Positions 8,058 through 51,272 of a stretch of DNA of 64,000 nucleotides are shown one piece after another. The DNA is from Candidatus Bathyarchaeota archaeon (GTDB lineage: Archaea > Thermoproteota > Bathyarchaeia > Bathyarchaeales > Bathycorpusculaceae): the NCBI GenBank assembly GCA_903901015.1, contig CAIUPH010000114.1:1-64000 (forward strand). Reading direction: 5' to 3'. How positions within the stretch are numbered: position 1 is the stretch's first letter; every line of letters starts with the position of its first letter. Under the pieces are notes generated by a model. That model did no database searches. It saw only the letters and a program-made list of their open reading frames with translations, and was not told the origin of the DNA. A program made the position numbers and the translations under genes.

Positions 8058-9766
8058 AAATGGCAAAAATGACTGGTGCACGTGCACTCTTAGAATCCCT
8101 TGAACATCAAAAAGTTGAAGTTATCTTCGGCATCTTAGGCGGCGCCATCCTCCCAGTATACGATGAGCTGTGCGGCAACAAGAAAATCCGTCACATACTC
8201 GCCCGACATGAGCAGTGTGCAGCCCACGAAGCCGAAGGCTACGCACGAGCCAGCGGAAGAGCAGGCGTATGCATGGCAACCAGCGGACCCGGAGCCACCA
8301 ACTTAGTCACGGGAATCGCCAACGCCTACATGGATTCCTCCCCCATAGTTGCATTGACAGGGCAGATTCCAGCTTCAGGCGTCAACACCAGTTACATGAT
8401 TGGCAGAGATGCGTTTCAGGAAGCAGACATAATCGGCATCACCACCGCTATCACCAAATACAGTTACCAACCTCGAACAGTCGCCGAGATTCCTTTAACC
8501 GTCAACAACGCCTTCTACATCGCAACCACAGGCAGACCTGGACCAGTCCTGATTGATTTGCCCAAGAACGTTCAGTCAGCAAGCGCCGAAGTTGAATTCA
8601 CCAACAAAATTGATTTACGCGGTTACAAACTGCCCACAGAACCTGATTTGGCAAGAATCGCTGAAGCCTCAGACCTGTTAGCAAAGGCTAAGTTCCCATT
8701 GATTCTTGCAGGCGGCGGAGTCATAATTGCAGGTGCCTCAGAAGAATTAGTCAAGATGTCAGATTTGCTAATGGCGCCAGTTGCTACAACCTTCATGGGT
8801 AAGGGTGCTTTTCCAGAGAACCACCCGCTTTCGCTGGGAAGCATCGGCATGCACGGCAACCCCGCAGCAAACAAACTGATGGGTGAAGCAGACGTTTTGC
8901 TGGCTGCCGGAACCCGCTTCTCTGACCGCGCAACCGCAAACCTTGACAGTTTTGCCCCGAACGCCAAGAAAATTCACATAGACATCGATAACGCAGAAAT
9001 CAACAAGAACATCGAAATCGACGTGCCCATCGTTGCAGACGCTAAAGTCTCGATGAAAATGCTCTACGCTGCCACTTCACAGAAACTGAAGAAGGGCGAG
9101 GGCACCGCATGGACAAAACGGGTGAAAGAAGCCAAAGAACAGCTAAGCCCGCTGCTGAAAGATTTGCCAAGGGACTTAGTGCCTAAATCGCTGTTAACAG
9201 AGTTACGTAAACTGCTGCCTGAAAGCTCCATAGTCACCACAGAAGTTGGACAAAACCAAATGTGGTCCGCTCTGTACTTTCAAGCATTAAAACCCCGCAC
9301 ATTCATCAGTTCAGGCGGACTTGGAACCATGGGCTTCGGTTTCCCAGCAGCCATAGGAGCAAAAGTTGCGTGCCCAGACCGAGCAGTCGTGGATGTTGCA
9401 GGCGACGGCAGCTTCATAATGAGCGAACAGGAACTTGCGTGCTCAGTGACCGAGAACATTCCAGTTACCGTCATAGTGCTCAACAACTCAATCCTTGGCA
9501 TGGTGGCGCAGTGGCAACGTATGCTCTACAAACGCCGCTACATGGCTGTTCACTTGGGCAAGACACCCGACTTCGTCAAGCTGGCAGAAGCCTACGGAGC
9601 ACAGGGGCTGCGAGCAACCTCCATCGAAGAGTTCCACAAAGCAGTTAAGACAGCTTTAGCTAGTAAAGTAACGACGGTAATCGACGTGCCGATTGGCTCA
9701 GAGACCGATGTGGTTCCCTTTGTGCCTCCAGGCTGCGGTTTACCGCAACAGATAGGTGACTACTAA
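8054..9766 (+). CDS. ilvB: Acetolactate synthase large (catalytic) subunit
   Basis: ThDP enzyme that condenses two pyruvates, or pyruvate and 2-ketobutyrate, as the first common step to valine, leucine and isoleucine. The activating glutamate lies in RHEQCAAHEAEGYARASG. The ThDP/Mg motif is GDGSFIMSEQELA with the downstream VLNN, and the central domain shows AGTRFSDRAT. About 570 residues is normal. A TTG at 8054 sits 7 nt from AGGAG at 8042-8046; the ATG at 8060 is the alternative. It overlaps ilvN by one base. Confidence 0.95.
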   Translation: MKMAKMTGARALLESLEHQKVEVIFGILGGAILPVYDELCGNKKIRHILARHEQCAAHEAEGYARASGRAGVCMATSGPGATNLVTGIANAYMDSSPIVALTGQIPASGVNTSYMIGRDAFQEADIIGITTAITKYSYQPRTVAEIPLTVNNAFYIATTGRPGPVLIDLPKNVQSASAEVEFTNKIDLRGYKLPTEPDLARIAEASDLLAKAKFPLILAGGGVIIAGASEELVKMSDLLMAPVATTFMGKGAFPENHPLSLGSIGMHGNPAANKLMGEADVLLAAGTRFSDRATANLDSFAPNAKKIHIDIDNAEINKNIEIDVPIVADAKVSMKMLYAATSQKLKKGEGTAWTKRVKEAKEQLSPLLKDLPRDLVPKSLLTELRKLLPESSIVTTEVGQNQMWSALYFQALKPRTFISSGGLGTMGFGFPAAIGAKVACPDRAVVDVAGDGSFIMSEQELACSVTENIPVTVIVLNNSILGMVAQWQRMLYKRRYMAVHLGKTPDFVKLAEAYGAQGLRATSIEEFHKAVKTALASKVTTVIDVPIGSETDVVPFVPPGCGLPQQIGDY

Positions 9767-10278
9767 TGGAAACTGGAAAAACCAAAGTAATTAGCATATT
9801 AGTCGAAAACAAACCCGGTGTCCTGCACACCATCGCTAACCTGTTTCGCCGAAGAAACTTTAACATCGACAGCATCACCGTCGGACCTACCCAGGAACCA
9901 GACACTTCCCGCATGACCATCACCATCAACGGAGACGAAAAAACCATCGATCAAGTTGTTAAGCAAGTCGCCAAGCAAATTGACGTCCTCAGAGTCAGCG
10001 AACTGGAGCCAGGACACTTCGTCATGCGTGAACTCGCATTGGTAAAGGTTAACGTGCCAAGCAGCAAAGAACGAAGCGACATAATCAACTGCGTAAACGT
10101 GTTCCGAGGCAGAATAATCGACGTCTCCACCGAAGCTTTAACTGTTGAAATCACAGGAACCCCCGATAAAATCGATGCCTTCCTCAACCTCATGAATACA
10201 TTCGGCGTCATAGAACTCGCGAGAACAGGCATAACGGCGCTTGCAAGAGGCGCAAAATCGATAAGAATCGACGAATAA
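9766..10278 (+). CDS. ilvN: Acetolactate synthase regulatory subunit
   Basis: Small subunit that stabilises IlvB and confers feedback inhibition by branched-chain amino acids. An N-terminal ACT domain is visible (ISILVENKPGVLHTIANLFR, then NIDSITVGPT). The C-terminal ALS_ss_C domain follows from about residue 85. The 170-residue length is typical. The ATG overlaps the ilvB stop in TAATG, so translation is coupled and the stoichiometry balanced. Confidence 0.95.
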   Translation: METGKTKVISILVENKPGVLHTIANLFRRRNFNIDSITVGPTQEPDTSRMTITINGDEKTIDQVVKQVAKQIDVLRVSELEPGHFVMRELALVKVNVPSSKERSDIINCVNVFRGRIIDVSTEALTVEITGTPDKIDAFLNLMNTFGVIELARTGITALARGAKSIRIDE

Positions 10279-10373
10279 ACAGTATTCCATAAGCGGAAAT
10301 ACTTAATTGTCTGTTCTTCAAAAAAGCCAATATCTTAAGTGCATTTAGTTAAGTTTCAAGGATAGGAGAAACC
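10279..10373 (+). promoter_or_regulatory. Upstream region of the leu operon
   Basis: A 95-bp AT-rich gap. A GGAG at 10365-10368, 6 nt before the leuC ATG, is a good ribosome-binding site. AT-rich stretches such as AATACTTAATTG near 10300 may be promoter elements. The leucine genes may therefore have their own transcript in addition to read-through from ilvN. Confidence 0.3.
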
Positions 10374-11642
10374 ATGAACATAACAGAAAAAATCTTAGCT
10401 AAAGCTGCAGGAAAAAAAGCTGTGCATCCAGGCGAAATCGTCGACGCAAACGTCGACGTCGTAATGATACACGACTTAACTGGACCTTTAGCGGTTGAAG
10501 CCTTCAAAAGAATAGGCGTACAAAAAGTTTGGAATAACAAAAAAATAGTGTTAATTCTGGACCATCAGGTTCCAGCAGAATCGGTTAAGGCAGCAGAACT
10601 CCACAAGATCATGAGGCAATTCGCCAAAGACCAGAACCTGCAAATCTACGATGTGGGCAAAGGCGGAATCTGCCACCAGGTCATGCCGGAAAAAGGACAT
10701 GTAACTCCAGGCGCGGTCATAGTTGGCGCAGACAGCCACACCTGCACATACGGCGCGTTCGGCGCATTCGCCACAGGCATCGGCTCAACGGAAGCAGCCG
10801 CAGTTATGGCAACAGGAAAAATATGGTTCAAAGTGCCCCCAACAATCAAAGTCAACGTGAAGGGCAACTTCCAAAAATATGTTACACCAAAAGACCTAAT
10901 CTTATATGTAATAGGAAAGATGGGCGTTGACGGAGCTATATACAAAGCCGCTGAATTCACGGGTCCAACCATCAAAAAAATGAGCATCGCAGGCCGAATG
11001 ACCCTGTGCAACATGGCTGTGGAGATGGGCGCCAAAAACGGCATAATCGAACCCGACGAAACCACACGCAAATTCTTAGAGACCAGAGTCAAAGCATTGC
11101 CAGATTTTGACGCGTTGAAGAGCGACAAAGACGCGGCATACGAGAGCACCGTTGAATTTGATGTGTCGAAGATGGAGCCGCAGGTCGCTTGTCCATCATC
11201 CGTTGACAATGTGAAGCCTATTTCGGAAGTTGGCAACGTCACAATCGAACAAGCCTTCATCGGGTCATGTACAAACGGCAGGCTGGAAGACTTACGCTTA
11301 GCTGCGGAAGTCATGAAGGGCAAACGCGTTAAAGACGGCGTACGAGCCCTGGTGATTCCAGCGTCGCAGGAAGTTTGGAAACAAGCCGATCAAGAAGGCT
11401 TGCTGCAGATTTTCATTGATGCAGGCGCAATCGTATGCGGAAGCGCATGCGGGCCATGTCTGGGCGGCCACATTGGCTTACTGGCAGCGGGCGAATCATG
11501 CGTAAGCACCTCTAACCGTAACTTCATCGGCAGAATGGGCAGCACCCAAGCCAGCGTCTACTTAGCCTCACCCGCAACGGTGGCGGCTTCAGCAATCACG
11601 GGCAAATTAACTGACCCAACAAAACTGGAGAAGAAACCATGA
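10374..11642 (+). CDS. leuC: 3-isopropylmalate dehydratase / homoaconitase-type large subunit
   Basis: Aconitase-superfamily subunit carrying the [4Fe-4S] cluster; with LeuD it isomerises 2- to 3-isopropylmalate (or citramalate). Cluster ligands are visible in GSCTNGRLEDL and in CGSACGPCLGGH. GADSHTCTYGAFGAFATGIG is the substrate-binding motif of the short archaeal/bacterial form. At 422 residues it is the archaeal-type LeuC without the swivel domain. Its stop overlaps the leuD start by 4 bp. Because the window has two synthase and two dehydrogenase paralogs but one dehydratase, this enzyme may serve more than one pathway. Confidence 0.93.
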   Translation: MNITEKILAKAAGKKAVHPGEIVDANVDVVMIHDLTGPLAVEAFKRIGVQKVWNNKKIVLILDHQVPAESVKAAELHKIMRQFAKDQNLQIYDVGKGGICHQVMPEKGHVTPGAVIVGADSHTCTYGAFGAFATGIGSTEAAAVMATGKIWFKVPPTIKVNVKGNFQKYVTPKDLILYVIGKMGVDGAIYKAAEFTGPTIKKMSIAGRMTLCNMAVEMGAKNGIIEPDETTRKFLETRVKALPDFDALKSDKDAAYESTVEFDVSKMEPQVACPSSVDNVKPISEVGNVTIEQAFIGSCTNGRLEDLRLAAEVMKGKRVKDGVRALVIPASQEVWKQADQEGLLQIFIDAGAIVCGSACGPCLGGHIGLLAAGESCVSTSNRNFIGRMGSTQASVYLASPATVAASAITGKLTDPTKLEKKP

Positions 11643-39832: not shown

Positions 39833-40257
39833 AAACTCACCACCCTTAAATGGGGTTTTCAATCCAATAAATTTATTGTTATAACTATCACTGTTCAGAT
39901 GGTTTGGCTGAGTTTGTTTTTTTTATTAGTAGTTGTAGTGAAAAGTCTCTCAGTCACAACAACAACCAACAGACTGGGCTGCACAGTGTGTTTGGGGTTC
40001 AGGGTCAGGTTTGGATTGCAGATTGATTGTGTCAGGCAGCCACAAACAGTTCAATCATAGTGAAAGAATTAAGGCAAAAGCAAGTTATAACAAGTTAACA
40101 AAGCATACGCGTGTTTTTGTGTAGCGACGCTGCTGATTGCTGTCTTATACCTGAGCAAAAGAAGTTCCTGATTAATCCAAAATAGCTCCAGAAGCTATAA
40201 GGTTTAAATGAAGGAAAACAGACTAAAAAGACACGGCTAGAAAAACAGTGGTTAATT
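39833..40257. other. Intergenic region between hsp20 and the tRNA-Met site
   Basis: 425 bp without a convincing gene. It contains the hsp20 promoter (leftward) and, at 40203-40209, TTTAAAT, a possible TATA box about 50 bp upstream of the tRNA 5' end. Short repeated words (CAACAAC, GTTTGG) occur near 39960-40060 with no clear structure. Confidence 0.4.
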
Positions 40258-40392
40258 GCCGGGGTAGCCTAGCCTGGCTAGGGCGCCAGACTCATAATCT
40301 GGTAGGACAAACCCAGATGAGAAATCTGGAGACAATAAATGGGGCTAAACGCCTGTTGCCAGAAGTCGCGGGCTCGAATCCCGTCCCAGAAG
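40258..40392 (+). tRNA. tRNA-Met(CAT), 5' part joined to element-borne 3' part; two introns; acceptor stem broken
   Basis: The acceptor strand GCCGGGG (40258-40264), D arm and anticodon stem CCAGA/TCTGG with loop CTCATAA are intact. A perfect BHB motif is present: helix CCAGA, 4-bp CTCA/TGAG, 3-nt bulges TAA and AAA, inner helix TCTGG/CCAGA. It predicts a 27-nt intron at 40297-40323 (position 37/38). A second motif (CTGG/CCAG, bulges AGA and AAG) predicts a 33-nt intron at 40332-40364, leaving the standard variable loop AGGTC. The T arm GCGGG-CTCGAAT-CCCGT is fine, but the 3' acceptor CCCAGAA pairs with only 4 of 7 positions. It is therefore probably inactive as it stands. CAT could also be a tRNA-Ile2. 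Confidence 0.75.
40284..40302 (+). repeat. attL core (19-bp direct repeat)
   Basis: CGCCAGACTCATAATCTGG, identical to 50501-50519. It covers the anticodon stem-loop of the tRNA. Flanking bases differ immediately on both sides (G/T before, T/A after), so the crossover lies within these 19 bp. Confidence 0.92.
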
Positions 40393-40586
40393 CAGAATTA
40401 GCGTCTGTTTCGACGAACGGCACCAATTCGACCCTGCTACCCCAACACAATCCCCAAAAGCCCCAAAATAGGGGTATTGATAACACCATTGATAACAAAA
40501 CTGCTAAGAATCGCCCACCGCAATTAAACATAGAGGACAGAAAGCGTTTATTCTACTCAATCCTATCTGAAGGGGTTCACCAATGA
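40303..40586 (+). pseudogene. 3' part of the att-spanning gene, cut off by integration
   Basis: Downstream of the core the frame runs on (NLVGQTQMRNLETINGAKRL) through the tRNA-like sequence to a TGA at 40584-40586 that overlaps the integrase ATG (ATGA). In the excised circle this frame is continuous with the gene starting at 50261: 259 + 284 = 543 bp, 180 codons plus stop, with no frameshift. In the integrated state it has lost its own start and promoter. The C-terminal half is hydrophilic, rich in N, K, P and T. Confidence 0.8.
40476..40496 (+). repeat. Arm-type repeats, left side (2 x ATTGATAAC)
   Basis: Two copies of ATTGATAAC start at 40476 and 40488, 12 bp apart. They are the reverse complement of the three GTTATCAAT copies at the right end. 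They resemble arm-binding sites for an integrase N-terminal domain or an excision factor; that role is inferred. Confidence 0.6.
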
Positions 40587-41428
40587 CACAAAATGAAGAC
40601 GCATTCACTAAATTATTTACTGATTGGCTACTAAACGAAAAAAAACTCAATGCTAAAGTTGTATACGAATATGCTAGAATATCCTTCAATTTTACGCAAA
40701 AAGCAAAGATAAGCGAATTTAACCCAAATGAAGACCCACAACAAAGAAAGCAAGAAATTCAAGAGAAAGTAAAAACTTTCCTAGACTTAGAGAACCCTCA
40801 TAGCTACAGAAATAATTTAGCATCTTTAAAGAAATTATTTGAATTCATTGGCGAACCTGAAGTTATGGAAGGTTTCAAATATAAAGCGATAATGCCGACT
40901 TTTAGCATACAAACACCTAGCATAGATGATATGGTTAAATTTGGTAAGGCAATAGAGAACCAAAAAATTCAAGTCTATTATTATTTAGGGGTAGTTTCGG
41001 CAATTAGACCTGAACACCTTCTAAGACTTAGAAAAAAGCTATTTGACAAAAACAATAATATGATTAATACATGGATGAAAGTTTTCGGCAAAAAGAACTT
41101 TTTCTTCAGTTTCTACACTAACGAAACTAAGCCACTGATTGAAGAATATCTTAAGCAGATTCCAGATAATGAAGTGCTATTTGATTTCGGCAAAAGATAC
41201 ATATGCAAAGAATTCTGTAAAGCGTCTGAAATTAGCGGTGTCAAAATCGTGCCTAAAATGATGCGAAAGTTTTCTACCAATTGGTTAAGACGGCATGGCA
41301 TGATTAGCGAAGACGTAGACGTTATAACTTCTCATGTGCCTCAAAGCGTAGTAGCAAAGAACTATCTAGACGTTAGCCGAATTCACGAATCATATAATGA
41401 AGCCACTGAAAAGCTAAAGATTCTCTAA
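40583..41428 (+). CDS. int: Tyrosine recombinase / integrase
   Basis: 281 residues. The catalytic domain shows R142 in IRPEHLLRL, a lysine near 170 (VFGKKNF), R228 in KMMRKFSTNWL, H251 in SHVPQSV and the nucleophile Y261 in VAKNYLD. The usual box-II histidine before R228 is absent (KMMR), as in several archaeal viral integrases. The N-terminal ~100 residues form a helical core-binding domain. Its ATG overlaps the stop of the att-spanning frame, so in the circle it would be translationally coupled to that gene and to the ATPase operon. After integration the upstream part is lost, which should lower its expression. Confidence 0.92.
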   Translation: MTQNEDAFTKLFTDWLLNEKKLNAKVVYEYARISFNFTQKAKISEFNPNEDPQQRKQEIQEKVKTFLDLENPHSYRNNLASLKKLFEFIGEPEVMEGFKYKAIMPTFSIQTPSIDDMVKFGKAIENQKIQVYYYLGVVSAIRPEHLLRLRKKLFDKNNNMINTWMKVFGKKNFFFSFYTNETKPLIEEYLKQIPDNEVLFDFGKRYICKEFCKASEISGVKIVPKMMRKFSTNWLRRHGMISEDVDVITSHVPQSVVAKNYLDVSRIHESYNEATEKLKIL

Positions 41429-41883
41429 GGTTCCATATCTCTTTTTAATCTCTTTTTATCGCCAAGTTTCTAAGTTCTAAAATACATCAAATAAGTGGAC
41501 TCTTTGCTTCTTAACAAATTAAAAACCGTTATGGATGTTATGCATCGCGGAAATATACATTAATAGTTAACGTGGGTTTGCATGGTTTAGGTTGGCTAAG
41601 GATGGTGTTATCAATCACCAGATGTTAAGTCTGAAGATTGTTAACAACATAGGTCAGTTTTTGCCCGCCGCAAAAAACCCAAAGTTAATGCGTCATAAGG
41701 CATGGATAAATTGAATGAAGCATGTTCGATTTTTTTCGGCTTGTAAATGGATTAATAAAGTTAAATAGGATAAAATATCCCCGTACCAGCCTAAATAAGC
41801 CCAAAACGTGACCGAATAGACTCCACTCTAAACTTATCGCTGAATAAAAATAAACTTTGGCATACGTAAAAAAAGAAATGGGT
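41429..41883. other. Intergenic region after the integrase
   Basis: 455 AT-rich bp without a gene. It contains a further GTTATCAAT at 41607-41615 within GGTGTTATCAATCACC, the same 9-bp word as at both element ends. GTTAACAACA lies near 41640. A T-rich run follows the integrase stop and may terminate it. Confidence 0.4.
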
Positions 41884-43698: not shown

Positions 43699-45324
43699 TT
43701 AAAGAAAAGAATTATGCTGTTTAGCTTTTCTTATATTGTTCTTTCTTATAGTGATGGTTACAGCGAAAAGCGACAGAATCACGAATATGCCTAAGACGGC
43801 TATGGCTGGAAACTCTGGAACAGTAGGAGTTGGTGAAGGTAAAGTGGATGAAGTAACAGTTGGGATTGCTGTTGGGTTTGATGAGGTTGGCGAAGTTGTA
43901 GGTGATGATTTTGGACTTGCTGTTTGGGTTGGATTCGCAGTTGGTGAAACAGTTGGTGAAGGAGTAGGTGTTGGTGAAGGAGTAGGTGTTGGTGAAGGAG
44001 TAGGTGTTGGTGAAGGAGTAGGTGTTGGACTTGGAGACGGGGTTGGAGTTGGGTTAGGGGCAAAAGTTGCTGAGATGGTAGTTGCACCATTAACGTTTTG
44101 AACAGTATAAGAATTAACTGTACCCACTGAAGTTCCATTAACCAAAACATTAACTATGTAATAACCAGTATTTGGCGTTATATTGAAAGTTTGACTGCCG
44201 CCATAGTTAATGCTCATAGTTCCACTTGGGCTGATAGAACCACCCGTACTATTAGAAGCAGTAATGTAGGTTGGTGCTTGAGAATTTGGTGCATTCAAAA
44301 ATGGGCTGTATGTAACTGTACCTAAGTTGAAATCATTTTTAAAATCATAAATAGACTGGCTGATGGCTGTTGAATTAGTTGTTCCCCACCAATTATAAGT
44401 AGCATTTACGCTGATTGGAATATTTGATTTGAAATTATAGTTGCTGTTATTGTAGATATTATTATTCAGAATTGCTGGTTGAGGTGCAGTAATTCCAATC
44501 CAATCAATATAAACGCCAATTGTGTTGTTTGTGATTGTGTTATTTCTAACTAATGGGGAACCAAGATTGGAACCTTGCCATTCACTAATTCCTATGCCTG
44601 CTGTATTGTTGATTATTACGTTATTTTCTATGACGTAAGTAGGATTATCTGAAAAAGATGTAAAGGAATGGATTCCGTCTCCGCAACCTGATATGATATT
44701 ACTAGAAATTGTTGTATTGCCAGTAGCAACGGGGTTTTGCCAGAGAGAAATTCCCTGATTAAGGATAGTGTTATTAGAAATCGTGGCTATTCCACCCCAT
44801 TGAACACTGATTCCATTTGTTATAATATTGTTTGAAATTACAGATGTTCCATTTGCCCTTTGCAATATGCTTATGGCGTTATTGATAGTATCATTATATA
44901 TTTTGGCTGAATTACTTAATGCTAAATCAGAATTCAAAACCGCATTCTCTATTATTGAACCTGTGCCAGTAGATTGGTTCCAACCAGCACCGAACTGGGT
45001 GAAAGTTATTTGTCCTCCGTTGAAAGTGATGGAGTTGATACTGTTCCCCAATGCTTGCATTGTGCCATTAACCATTATGTAATTACTATTGAGGTTTACA
45101 GTTACACCTGACTGAATTGTCAAATTAACGCCATTGTTTACAAGAAGGTTTCCAGTTAAAATGTATGGGCTATCTGCTTGTGTCCATGTAGTGTCTGAAG
45201 TAATTACTCCACTTACGTTTGTAGAAGCTTGCACTAAATCAAAATGTATAGTGCCAAATAAAACAACTGAACTAACAATTAATGTTATTAAGAATATGCT
45301 TAACCGTGTTTTATTCATCTTCAA
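43699..45324 (-). CDS. Exported beta-helix surface protein with PEFP C-terminal anchor
   Basis: 541 residues. A signal peptide ([17 protein letters not shown]) is followed by a right-handed beta-helix of NosD/pectate-lyase style with many short N-rich repeats such as [14 protein letters not shown] and [15 protein letters not shown] beta domain ([20 protein letters not shown]) comes next. A Pro-Thr-Ser linker of about 70 residues is partly encoded by perfect 18-bp tandem repeats. [11 protein letters not shown] then leads into a transmembrane helix and basic tail, the archaeal PEF-type anchor layout. It likely binds a surface or polysaccharide, or is a spike-like protein; this is inferred. Confidence 0.85.
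43955..44026 (-). repeat. Four perfect 18-bp tandem repeats
   Basis: The unit GGTGAAGGAGTAGGTGTT (forward strand) repeats four times exactly, with degenerate copies on both sides. On the coding strand it gives a six-residue Pro/Thr/Ser unit (TPTPSP) of the stalk. Copy number probably varies between strains by slippage. Confidence 0.95.
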
Positions 45325-48969: not shown

Positions 48970-50196
48970 ATGTACGATTTTATGGCTTTTTTGCTTCAAA
49001 AAAGTCGAAAAATGGCACAAAAAAAGCGAAATATTTCGAAGATTTGCTATATATTTGTCAATCTAGTTCATCATTCACCACATTTAGAAGGTGAAAGCAC
49101 GGAAAACAACCAAAACCAAAACAATGAAGGGATTCATAGCGATTTAAGCAACATCTTAACCGACATAAAGCAACATTTAGGTTTAATTCTAGTCGCTGAA
49201 TCGGGACACGGTAAAAGTTTTACAGCGTTTAGCATAGTTAAAGAAGCACTAAAAGACCAAAACATGACAGTGATAATACTTAGCCCTAGCTCTATTTGGA
49301 AAAGAAATTATGGCTTTATCAATTGTGTTCAGGTTGGAACCTCAGAGTTTAACCCCATTGTGGCAATAGATAAGACCGACATCGAAAACGTTCAATTTCT
49401 CAGAGACACGATTCATATAAACTTAGACAAAAAATACAGCTACATTAAATCTCAATGGCTAGAAGACCTTTTACGTTCTAAGGCATCTTTGCTTTTTGAT
49501 ATTCACTATTTGAACGGTAGACGCATAAAATATTTTGAATCGGTAGTTCTTGAATACATCTTTAAAATGCAAAAATCAGCAATTGATAAAGACCCAACAT
49601 ACAAACATCATTATTTGATAGTTCTAGAGGAAGCACAAACAAGTTTTGGAACTTATTCAATGAATTCAGATGATTCACTAGAGCTATTTTCACTTTTTAC
49701 AATTTCCCGTTCGGATGCCTTCATTCACTACCTAGTTTTAGGTCAACGACTAAACGATATTAGCTGTAAAATTGTTGAACGCCTAAGAGTTTTTTGTGGT
49801 CTTACGCTAGGCGAAAATAGTTTAAGGAAATTAAAAGCCATGATGCCGAATGAAGAGACTAAGAAGAGAATTCAATGTTTGCCTAAACGACATTGGATTT
49901 ATTTAAACGGGTCAACGAATCCCGAACTAGTAATTTCAGAGTATAAGAAAGAAGGAAGTGTAAAATATTTAAAACCTGAGCCGAACCCAAAAAGAACAGA
50001 GCCAAAACCAAAAGAGTCTTTGGTTTTAAGGTATATGAAATTCGTAAATAAATTCAATCCATTCGGAACCGAACCAATGACCGAAAGCATAAACCTAGAC
50101 CCGAATACTTACGACACTGAGAACAAACAAGAAAGTGAAGAGGACGCTTTAGAGGAAGATAACGCACTTCTAGAAGAGGAAGACGATTTATGGTAA
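48970..50196 (+). CDS. P-loop ATPase of the element (HerA/VirB4-like or viral packaging type)
   Basis: 408 residues. The Walker A motif is AESGHGKS at 76-83 and Walker B is YLIVLEEAQ near 215-223. LVLGQRLNDISCKIVERLRV after it resembles the sensor region of HerA/FtsK-superfamily ATPases, which move DNA in conjugation or virion packaging. The C-terminal ~80 residues are charged and acidic at the end. Possible starts are ATG 48970, 48982 and 49012. In the circular form it would lie directly upstream of the att-spanning gene and the integrase. Confidence 0.75.
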   Translation: MYDFMAFLLQKSRKMAQKKRNISKICYIFVNLVHHSPHLEGESTENNQNQNNEGIHSDLSNILTDIKQHLGLILVAESGHGKSFTAFSIVKEALKDQNMTVIILSPSSIWKRNYGFINCVQVGTSEFNPIVAIDKTDIENVQFLRDTIHINLDKKYSYIKSQWLEDLLRSKASLLFDIHYLNGRRIKYFESVVLEYIFKMQKSAIDKDPTYKHHYLIVLEEAQTSFGTYSMNSDDSLELFSLFTISRSDAFIHYLVLGQRLNDISCKIVERLRVFCGLTLGENSLRKLKAMMPNEETKKRIQCLPKRHWIYLNGSTNPELVISEYKKEGSVKYLKPEPNPKRTEPKPKESLVLRYMKFVNKFNPFGTEPMTESINLDPNTYDTENKQESEEDALEEDNALLEEEDDLW

Positions 50197-50260: not shown

Positions 50261-50647
50261 ATGAAAATGATTTGTCCCGAATGTGGAATTATGGGTTATA
50301 CCCAAATTAGAAAACAATACGCAAGAATTGCACATTATAGAGGTTTCAAAGGAGAATCTAGACTAGTCGATTGGCACAGTACAACCATTGAAGAACTACA
50401 GAAAGTTAACCCTCAAATTGTTATCAATAATGTTATCAATGAATCTCAAGTTTTTGTTATCAATGGAAGAAAAGCAAATTCAACATTGTTAACATCATAT
50501 CGCCAGACTCATAATCTGGAGTTTGAAGGGCCAAGCGCCTGCAACCAGAAGTCGCGGGCTCGAATCCCGCCCCCGGCACCACTTTTAAAATATTTTTTTA
50601 ACAGCTCCTTCTGTTTTTTCTGGGACATTTGGTTTTATTGTGTTTAG
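50261..50647 (+). CDS. 5' part of the att-spanning gene, with an altered tail at attR
   Basis: Starts MKMICPECGIMGYTQIRKQY with a single CxxC. The frame enters the att core at 50501 as RQTHNL. In the integrated state it continues into host tRNA sequence (EFEGPSACNQKSRARIPPPA) to a stop at 50645-50647, giving 128 residues with a spurious tail. In the circle it would instead read into the left end and finish as a 180-residue protein overlapping the integrase start. The N-terminus resembles small archaeal CPxCG proteins; the function is unknown. Confidence 0.75.
   Translation: MKMICPECGIMGYTQIRKQYARIAHYRGFKGESRLVDWHSTTIEELQKVNPQIVINNVINESQVFVINGRKANSTLLTSYRQTHNLEFEGPSACNQKSRARIPPPAPLLKYFFNSSFCFFWDIWFYCV
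50420..50464 (+). repeat. Arm-type repeats, right side (3 x GTTATCAAT)
   Basis: GTTATCAAT starts at 50420, 50432 and 50456, spacings of 12 and 24 bp. The reverse complement occurs twice at the left end, with 12-bp spacing. The copies lie 36 bp inside the attR core. They are within a coding frame (VINNVINE), but the inverted copies on the other arm encode different residues (IDNTIDN), so conservation appears to act on DNA. Confidence 0.65.
50501..50519 (+). repeat. attR core (19-bp direct repeat)
   Basis: CGCCAGACTCATAATCTGG, identical to the attL core at 40284-40302. Confidence 0.92.
50501..50578 (+). tRNA. tRNA-Met(CAT) 3' part at attR, with variable-loop intron and intact acceptor strand
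   Basis: The anticodon stem-loop is followed by AG, a predicted 29-nt intron (50522-50550), then GTC, the T arm GCGGG-CTCGAAT-CCCGC and the acceptor strand CCCCGGC with discriminator A and an encoded CCA. CCCCGGC pairs 7 of 7 with GCCGGGG at 40258. The intron junctions follow the same CTGG/CCAG helix and 3-nt bulges (AGT, AAG) as in the left copy. The D arm and 5' acceptor strand are missing, so this is the host 3' half left by integration. Fusing it to 40258-40302 restores a full tRNA with one intron and variable loop AGGTC. Confidence 0.8.
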
Positions 50648-50695
50648 GCACAAATTTTATATCGATAGGTGAACCGTTGTACTCTGAGGTTAACG

Positions 50696-50908
50696 ATGGA
50701 AACTGTTACAGTTTCAAAAAAATACCAAATAGTCATTCCAGAAAAACTGCGCAAGAGCGCTGGAATTAAACCCGGCGACAAAATGGTGGCAATAACCAAG
50801 CATGGAATCCTCCAGTACATACCCGTGCGCCCCCTAAAAGACACTGAAGGCTTTATTTCAGGGTTAGACACAGACGACCTCCGCGACGAGTCTGACAGAA
50901 TTGATTAG
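50696..50908 (+). CDS. vapB: VapB-type antitoxin, AbrB/SpoVT domain
   Basis: 70 residues. TVTVSKKYQIVIPEKLRKSA and GIKPGDKMVAI form the swapped-hairpin AbrB DNA-binding domain. The acidic C-terminus (LDTDDLRDESDRID) is the toxin-binding tail. The ATG at 50696 is preferred to an upstream in-frame start at 50669. It overlaps vapC by 8 bp, the usual antitoxin-toxin arrangement. Confidence 0.9.
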   Translation: METVTVSKKYQIVIPEKLRKSAGIKPGDKMVAITKHGILQYIPVRPLKDTEGFISGLDTDDLRDESDRID

Positions 50909-51272
50909 CATAGACAGTTTCGGCTGGATTGAACGGTTCACAAAGGGACCAAAGGCGCCTCAGTACAAGCAGGTCATTGAATCAACTCCTCCTAAAGAGA
51001 TACTCACATCAATCGTAGTTCTCTATGAAGTTTACAAGAAAATAAAGAAGCTCAAAGGCGAGGAAGAAGCGCTGCTGGTAGTTGCCGCCCTAAGTCAAAC
51101 CACAATTGTGCCCCTTGACCAAACATTATCCCTTGAAGCAGCAGATTTCAGCCTTGAGTATAACCTGCACTTCTCAGATGCAATCGTTTACGCCACTGCA
51201 CGCCACTGGAAAGCTAACCTTTACACTAGTGACACCGATTTGAAGCCGCTAAAGGCAGTGTGCTTTATTTAG
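50901..51272 (+). CDS. vapC: VapC-type PIN-domain ribonuclease toxin
   Basis: 123 residues with the PIN fold: D5 in ISIDSFGWIERF, E43 in VVLYEVYKKI, D94 in FSDAIVYATAR and a final acidic residue in LYTSDTDLKPL. Such toxins cut RNA until bound by VapB. It starts with TTG inside vapB. The pair lies about 115 bp outside attR in host-like, GC-richer DNA. Confidence 0.9.
   Translation: MISIDSFGWIERFTKGPKAPQYKQVIESTPPKEILTSIVVLYEVYKKIKKLKGEEEALLVVAALSQTTIVPLDQTLSLEAADFSLEYNLHFSDAIVYATARHWKANLYTSDTDLKPLKAVCFI

What the first reader, a model, noticed from the sequence alone, without database searches (positions are those of the whole stretch)
40303..40586. The att site lies inside a reading frame that is whole only in the excised circle and is coupled to the integrase
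Joining 50261-50519 to 40303-40586 gives 543 bp, exactly 181 codons with no internal stop. It ends in TGA that overlaps the integrase ATG. Thus in the free form ATPase, att-spanning gene and integrase would form one operon. Integration swaps the end of this protein for a spurious tail and removes the promoter from int. This differs from SSV-type integration, where the integrase gene itself is split, and suggests a built-in switch that silences int after insertion.
Basis: seen in the sequence. Interest (0 to 1): 0.85.

Follow-up and report, generated by a model that had tools for sequence, protein, structure and literature searches.

The report
Split archaeal integrase gene spanning att
The reading frame that becomes whole only when this archaeal mobile element pops out of the chromosome is the front half of the element's own integrase, a zinc-binding piece with its likely DNA docking sites written inside its coding sequence, so the finding is real but belongs to the known self-splitting (SSV-type) integrases in an unusual two-gene form.

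Summary
The joined frame is real: 50261-50519 + 40303-40586 gives 180 codons plus a TGA that overlaps the integrase ATG.

The interpretation needs changing. Relatives show that this ORF is the N-terminal half of an SSV-type ("suicidal") integrase. Homologues of its zinc-binding domain run into tRNA genes at 13 of 16 loci. In two same-genus genomes the N- and C-halves rejoin in frame across a tRNA core into one integrase. So the frame is conserved, and it is not an extra gene distinct from SSV-type integration. In this element a TGA/ATG overlap separates the halves, so the catalytic ORF survives integration, 157 bp behind a rebuilt tRNA gene. That argues against a strict "off" switch.

Two further features are new to me. 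Short DNA words (TGTTATCAAT here) are repeated inside the coding sequence on both sides of att, and relatives carry other words: possible lambda-like arm sites. The element's tRNA half also carries three introns, turning a one-intron host tRNA-Met into a three-intron one. Nothing was tested biochemically.

The parts
40203..40209 (+). TATA-like TTTAAAT, about 50 bp upstream of tRNA-Met (putative tRNA promoter, could also serve int in the provirus)
   Evidence: seen in sequence; inference
40258..40302 (+). host 5' half of elongator tRNA-Met(CAU), ending in the 19-bp attL core 40284-40302
40303..40425 (+). element-borne 3' half of tRNA-Met with three introns (40297-40323, 40330-40362, 40388-40417), ending CGGCACCA; with 40258-40302 it rebuilds a standard tRNA-Met
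40303..40586 (+). 3' part of the att-spanning ORF (N-terminal moiety of the integrase); TGA 40584-40586 overlaps int ATG 40583
40476..40497 (-). two inverted copies of TGTTATCAAT (40476-40485, 40488-40497), putative arm-type sites, C side
40583..41428 (+). tyrosine integrase catalytic ORF (281 aa, core-binding + catalytic domains); covers positions 123-350 of 355 in phrog_5127
41606..41615 (+). sixth element copy of TGTTATCAAT, downstream of int
48970..50196 (+). HerA/DUF87-like ATPase, upstream gene of the proposed operon
50261..50519 (+). 5' part of the att-spanning ORF: CxxC...H...H zinc domain (C5, C8, H25, H39) plus linker; in the provirus the frame runs on to 50647 as a tail
50419..50464 (+). 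three direct copies of TGTTATCAAT (50419, 50431, 50455), putative arm-type sites, N side
50501..50519 (+). attR core, 19 bp
50520..50581 (+). displaced host 3' half of tRNA-Met with its single native intron (50520-50548)

Best explanation
The att-spanning ORF is the N-terminal moiety (Int(N)) of an SSV-type (suicidal) tyrosine integrase. In the free circle it is a zinc-binding domain, a linker whose DNA holds three TGTTATCAAT sites, the attP core embedded in a tRNA-Met 3' half, a second linker holding two inverted sites, and then, by a TGA/ATG overlap, the core-binding/catalytic polypeptide. The zinc domain most likely binds the repeated words as arm-type sites while the catalytic part acts at the anticodon-arm core. 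Integration into the single elongator tRNA-Met gene cuts the N-terminal moiety off and rebuilds the tRNA with three introns supplied by the element. Shown by sequence: the anatomy, the crossover, the tRNA rebuilding, the homology and the repeats. Inferred: DNA binding, co-translation, excision control and splicing.
For: Zinc-domain homologues end in tRNA-derived peptides, and 13 of 16 overlap an ARAGORN tRNA. Catalytic relatives begin in tRNA-derived peptides. G015 (21-bp tRNA-Val core) and G001 (45-bp tRNA-Arg core) N- and C-halves join in frame into single integrases of about 350 aa, which score above the PF16795 cut-off. Our int aligns only to positions 123-350 of the 355-position phrog_5127. 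Arm words: 6 of 9 genomic TGTTATCAAT copies lie in this element, five of them flanking att. 14 of 23 N-linkers have a direct repeat of at least 9 nt against 3% of control coding windows. Copies fall in different reading frames in many relatives, and the word differs by zinc-domain subfamily. The rebuilt tRNA folds as tRNA-Met.
Against: Our own catalytic ORF scores below the PF16795 cut-off (23 vs 27 bits) and groups with a different catalytic clade than the same-genus zinc-type integrases. No excised circle was found. In G001 the zinc domain abuts the core with no repeats, and C-side copies were not found in G015. The zinc domain has no structural match. The zinc domain and linker are only weakly coding-like by codon use.
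Confidence: 0.8

Rival explanations
1. One reading: an independent gene, not part of the integrase, whose interruption silences int after insertion.
For: In this element the two ORFs are separate cistrons and int lies downstream of the att-spanning frame in the circle.
Against: Int is intact in the provirus and sits behind a tRNA gene.
Confidence: 0.08
2. The integrase is really one polypeptide here too: the TGA/ATG break is an assembly indel, a recent mutation in a trapped provirus, or is bypassed by frameshifting.
For: Relatives are single ORFs. Other relatives also show breaks between tRNA and catalytic domain (L207, L216). The int frame is open only 4 codons upstream of its ATG, so a single change there would fuse the frames.
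Against: An ATG sits exactly at the overlap, immediately before the core-binding domain. The catalytic motif is intact. I see no clear slippery heptamer.
Confidence: 0.22
3. The TGTTATCAAT copies are operators for a transcription regulator rather than integrase arm sites.
For: A sixth copy lies 178 bp past the int stop codon, in front of leftward genes.
Against: Five of six copies flank att, pointing inward from both sides. Repeats of other words recur in the same linker of relatives in other tRNA genes.
Confidence: 0.15
4. The frame past the junction is open by chance and codes for nothing.
For: Much of it is tRNA gene; coding signal there is absent. About 1% of shuffles are open.
Against: In-frame joining is conserved in two same-genus relatives, and full-length RHH-type integrases also read through a tRNA core.
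Confidence: 0.05

Closest known systems
SSV-type / suicidal integrases (SSV1, SSV2, pTN3, pT26-2; reviewed in PMC8371274)
   Same: att in a tRNA gene and inside the integrase coding unit; integration separates Int(N) from Int(C); Int(C) carries the catalytic residues and could be read from the tRNA promoter
   Different: N- and C-parts are separate overlapping cistrons here; zinc-binding N-domain; repeated DNA words around att inside the coding sequence, which I did not find described for archaeal integrases in the parts of the review I read
pNOB8-type integrases
   Same: an intact integrase ORF directly downstream of the rebuilt tRNA on the same strand in the provirus
   Different: att lies inside the upstream N-terminal cistron rather than outside the integrase unit; homology is to partitioned integrases
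Lambda/Tn916-type attP with core and arm sites
   Same: core flanked on both sides by short repeated sites, and a small N-terminal domain available to bind them
   Different: sites lie inside the integrase coding frame; zinc domain not shown to be homologous (fold search found nothing)
MGE-borne intron transfer into tRNA genes (Sugahara 2012, PMC3293823)
   Same: an intron-containing attP recombines with a tRNA gene that has fewer introns and leaves a more disrupted tRNA
   Different: three introns here, including an acceptor-stem intron seen in no other of 257 genomes

Membership tests
SSV-type (suicidal) integrase | attP lies within the integrase coding unit, which is partitioned by integration | tested here: inconclusive
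   Met in G015 and G001 relatives; here the partitioned frame is the N-terminal cistron while the catalytic ORF stays whole
SSV-type (suicidal) integrase | Phage_integr_3 (PF16795) catalytic domain at curated cut-off | tested here: not met
   Ours 23 vs 27 bits, E 8e-5; G015 and G001 relatives 30.8 and 35 bits
SSV-type (suicidal) integrase | tRNA target rebuilt by the element-borne part | tested here: met
   attL rebuilds tRNA-Met after removal of three introns; empty sites
Tyrosine recombinase | R...KxxR...H/R...Y catalytic set | tested here: met
   alignment; core-binding domain aligned there too
pNOB8-type integrase | integrase unit not crossed by att | tested here: not met
   att crosses the N-terminal cistron, homologous to Int(N) of partitioned integrases
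Lambda-like arm-type system | integrase N-domain binds arm sites | not testable with these tools
   repeats found; no binding data
Lambda/Tn916 Int N-terminal domain fold | structural similarity | tested here: inconclusive
   model of three long strands then a helix, pLDDT above 90 over residues 1-50; no Foldseek match

The most novel reading that the evidence does not exclude
A family of archaeal SSV-type integrases carries its own lambda-like attP, core plus arm sites, inside its coding sequence. The arm sites are read by an exchangeable N-terminal DNA-binding domain (zinc or ribbon-helix-helix), and integration physically separates that domain from the catalytic domain, giving a directionality control without a separate excision factor. 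In this element, fission into two overlapping cistrons keeps the catalytic part expressible in the provirus, a possible step from SSV-type to pNOB8-type integrases.
Probability: 0.45. Interest if true: 0.8.

Novelty: new variant of a known kind. Interest (0 to 1): 0.62.

Why it matters
It turns a puzzling 'att inside a gene' into a testable design: an integrase that encodes its docking sites within its own gene and loses its docking domain on integration. It gives a possible answer to how suicidal integrases set direction, suggests a route between the two classic archaeal integrase types, and shows an element adding introns, including an acceptor-stem one, to an essential single-copy tRNA.

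Tried and rejected
(1) Crossover at the T-arm repeat: rejected by the empty sites. (2) Destruction or trans-splicing of the only elongator tRNA-Met: considered because the assembly has no second copy; rejected once the acceptor-stem intron was recognised and the tRNA proved rebuilt. (3) Closest ATPase relatives (G023, G006, 61-65%) do not help: other proteins follow the ATPase; only G022 keeps the zinc ORF. (4) IMG/VR scans with ATPase, int, zinc-domain and catalytic alignments, and phage and plasmid collections: no relatives. (5) Structure of the N-domain: good local confidence but no fold match, so the resemblance in strand order to lambda/Tn916 Int N-domains stays a lead from memory. (6) No full-length single-ORF zinc-type integrase was found; only pairs joined across contigs.

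Full report
1. Observation. The joined frame, its length and the TGA/ATG overlap are as described. The post-junction stretch stays open in 1.1% of dinucleotide shuffles. Two repeats offer two possible crossovers, and only the anticodon-arm one keeps the frame. Same-genus genomes carry an uninterrupted tRNA-Met, 28 of them matched over the full length. The best two equal left flank to 40302 plus right flank from 50520, and the host flanks align across the site. The junction is therefore correct, though the circle itself is not in any collection searched.

2. The target tRNA. The target is the only elongator tRNA-Met in the assembly. The other two CAU tRNAs look like initiator Met and Ile2, by sequence. 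At first sight attL lacks an acceptor stem. It is complete once three introns are removed: 40297-40323 (canonical 37/38, pairing with the anticodon), 40330-40362 (homologous to the host's single intron) and 40388-40417 in the acceptor stem. The last has two 3-nt bulges around a 4-bp helix, and cutting there gives CCC+CGGCACCA (helix read by eye; the computed fold pairs part of it). The spliced product is a normal tRNA-Met that differs from the host's at one T-stem base. One same-genus genome, G003, has the first two introns; no genome of 257 shows the third. Recombination of an intron-bearing attP with an intron-poorer tRNA was proposed by Sugahara et al. (PMC3293823).

3. What the ORF is. Its first 40 residues form a domain with invariant C5, C8, H25 and H39. 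Homologues occur across the class. At 13 of 16 loci the homologous ORF runs into an intact tRNA gene, with tRNA types Arg, Val, Ser, Glu, Ala, Gly and Pro. Conversely, catalytic relatives in Bathyarchaeia, Hadesarchaea, Methanomethylicia, Nitrososphaeria and others mostly begin inside a tRNA piece, sense or antisense. In G015 and G001 the two halves, found on different contigs, share a tRNA core of 21 and 45 bp and join in frame (phase 0, no stop) into integrases of about 350 aa. Four full-length relatives, one in this very genome (L050), place a tRNA-derived stretch between a different N-domain and the catalytic part; for two of them this N-domain is ribbon-helix-helix-like by Pfam. The att-spanning ORF is thus Int(N).

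4. How this element differs. Relatives are one ORF. Here TGA/ATG separates the halves just before the core-binding domain. The 281-aa int keeps its catalytic set and groups with the wider catalytic clade rather than with the same-genus zinc-type integrases. This fits exchange of N- and C-moieties, as proposed for suicidal integrases (PMC8371274). Whether the break is functional, recent or an assembly fault cannot be told from one assembly.

5. Putative arm sites. TGTTATCAAT occurs nine times in the genome: three direct copies before the core, two inverted copies after it, one beyond int, and only three elsewhere. Relatives carry other words in the same linker: GGAAGTAA, mostly two to four times, in one zinc subfamily, ATTGACC one to three times in another, GGTAAACAA three times in L134. 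In the first group and L134 the copies sit in different reading frames (for example positions 2, 12, 26), so the DNA word and not a peptide is repeated. 14 of 23 linkers have a repeat of 9 nt or more against 3% of control windows (loci are related, so the P-value is only indicative). A 24-bp interval recurs here, in L134, in the GGAAGTAA group, and as TGTACGGTAC in Methanomethylicia Int(C) linkers. Not every relative has them, and binding is not shown.

6. Mechanism and silencing. In the circle, ATPase, Int(N) and int could be one operon. After integration Int(N) lies at attR with a tail, and int lies 157 bp after the tRNA end at attL. [quoted passage not shown] So separation from the docking domain is the likelier control, and transcriptional silencing is unproven.

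7. Verdict. A real and interesting anatomy; a new variant of a known kind.

Noticed in passing
window 40388-40417: Acceptor-stem intron in the element-borne tRNA-Met half; absent from every other of 257 class genomes searched.
   Followed up: yes
L138 27-672 (G002:C8) and L242 1501-1997 (G010:C57): Two zinc-type Int(N) frames face each other across one tRNA region, as if two elements had entered the same tRNA gene from both sides.
   Followed up: no
L050 about 9593-10657 (own genome C4:101657): A second, full-length suicidal-type integrase in the same genome whose ORF reads through a tRNA-derived stretch.
   Followed up: partly
L204, L207, L215, L222: Methanomethylicia Int(C) linkers carry TGTACGGTAC-like repeats 23-24 bp apart after the tRNA; in L207 a stop breaks the frame between tRNA and catalytic domain.
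   Followed up: partly
window 50669-51272: MazE/AbrB-like antitoxin and PIN toxin pair directly beyond attR.
   Followed up: no
window 43699-45324: 541-aa protein on the minus strand with a signal-like start, a Pro/Thr-rich repeat stretch and a C-terminal membrane-like segment; possible element surface protein.
   Followed up: no
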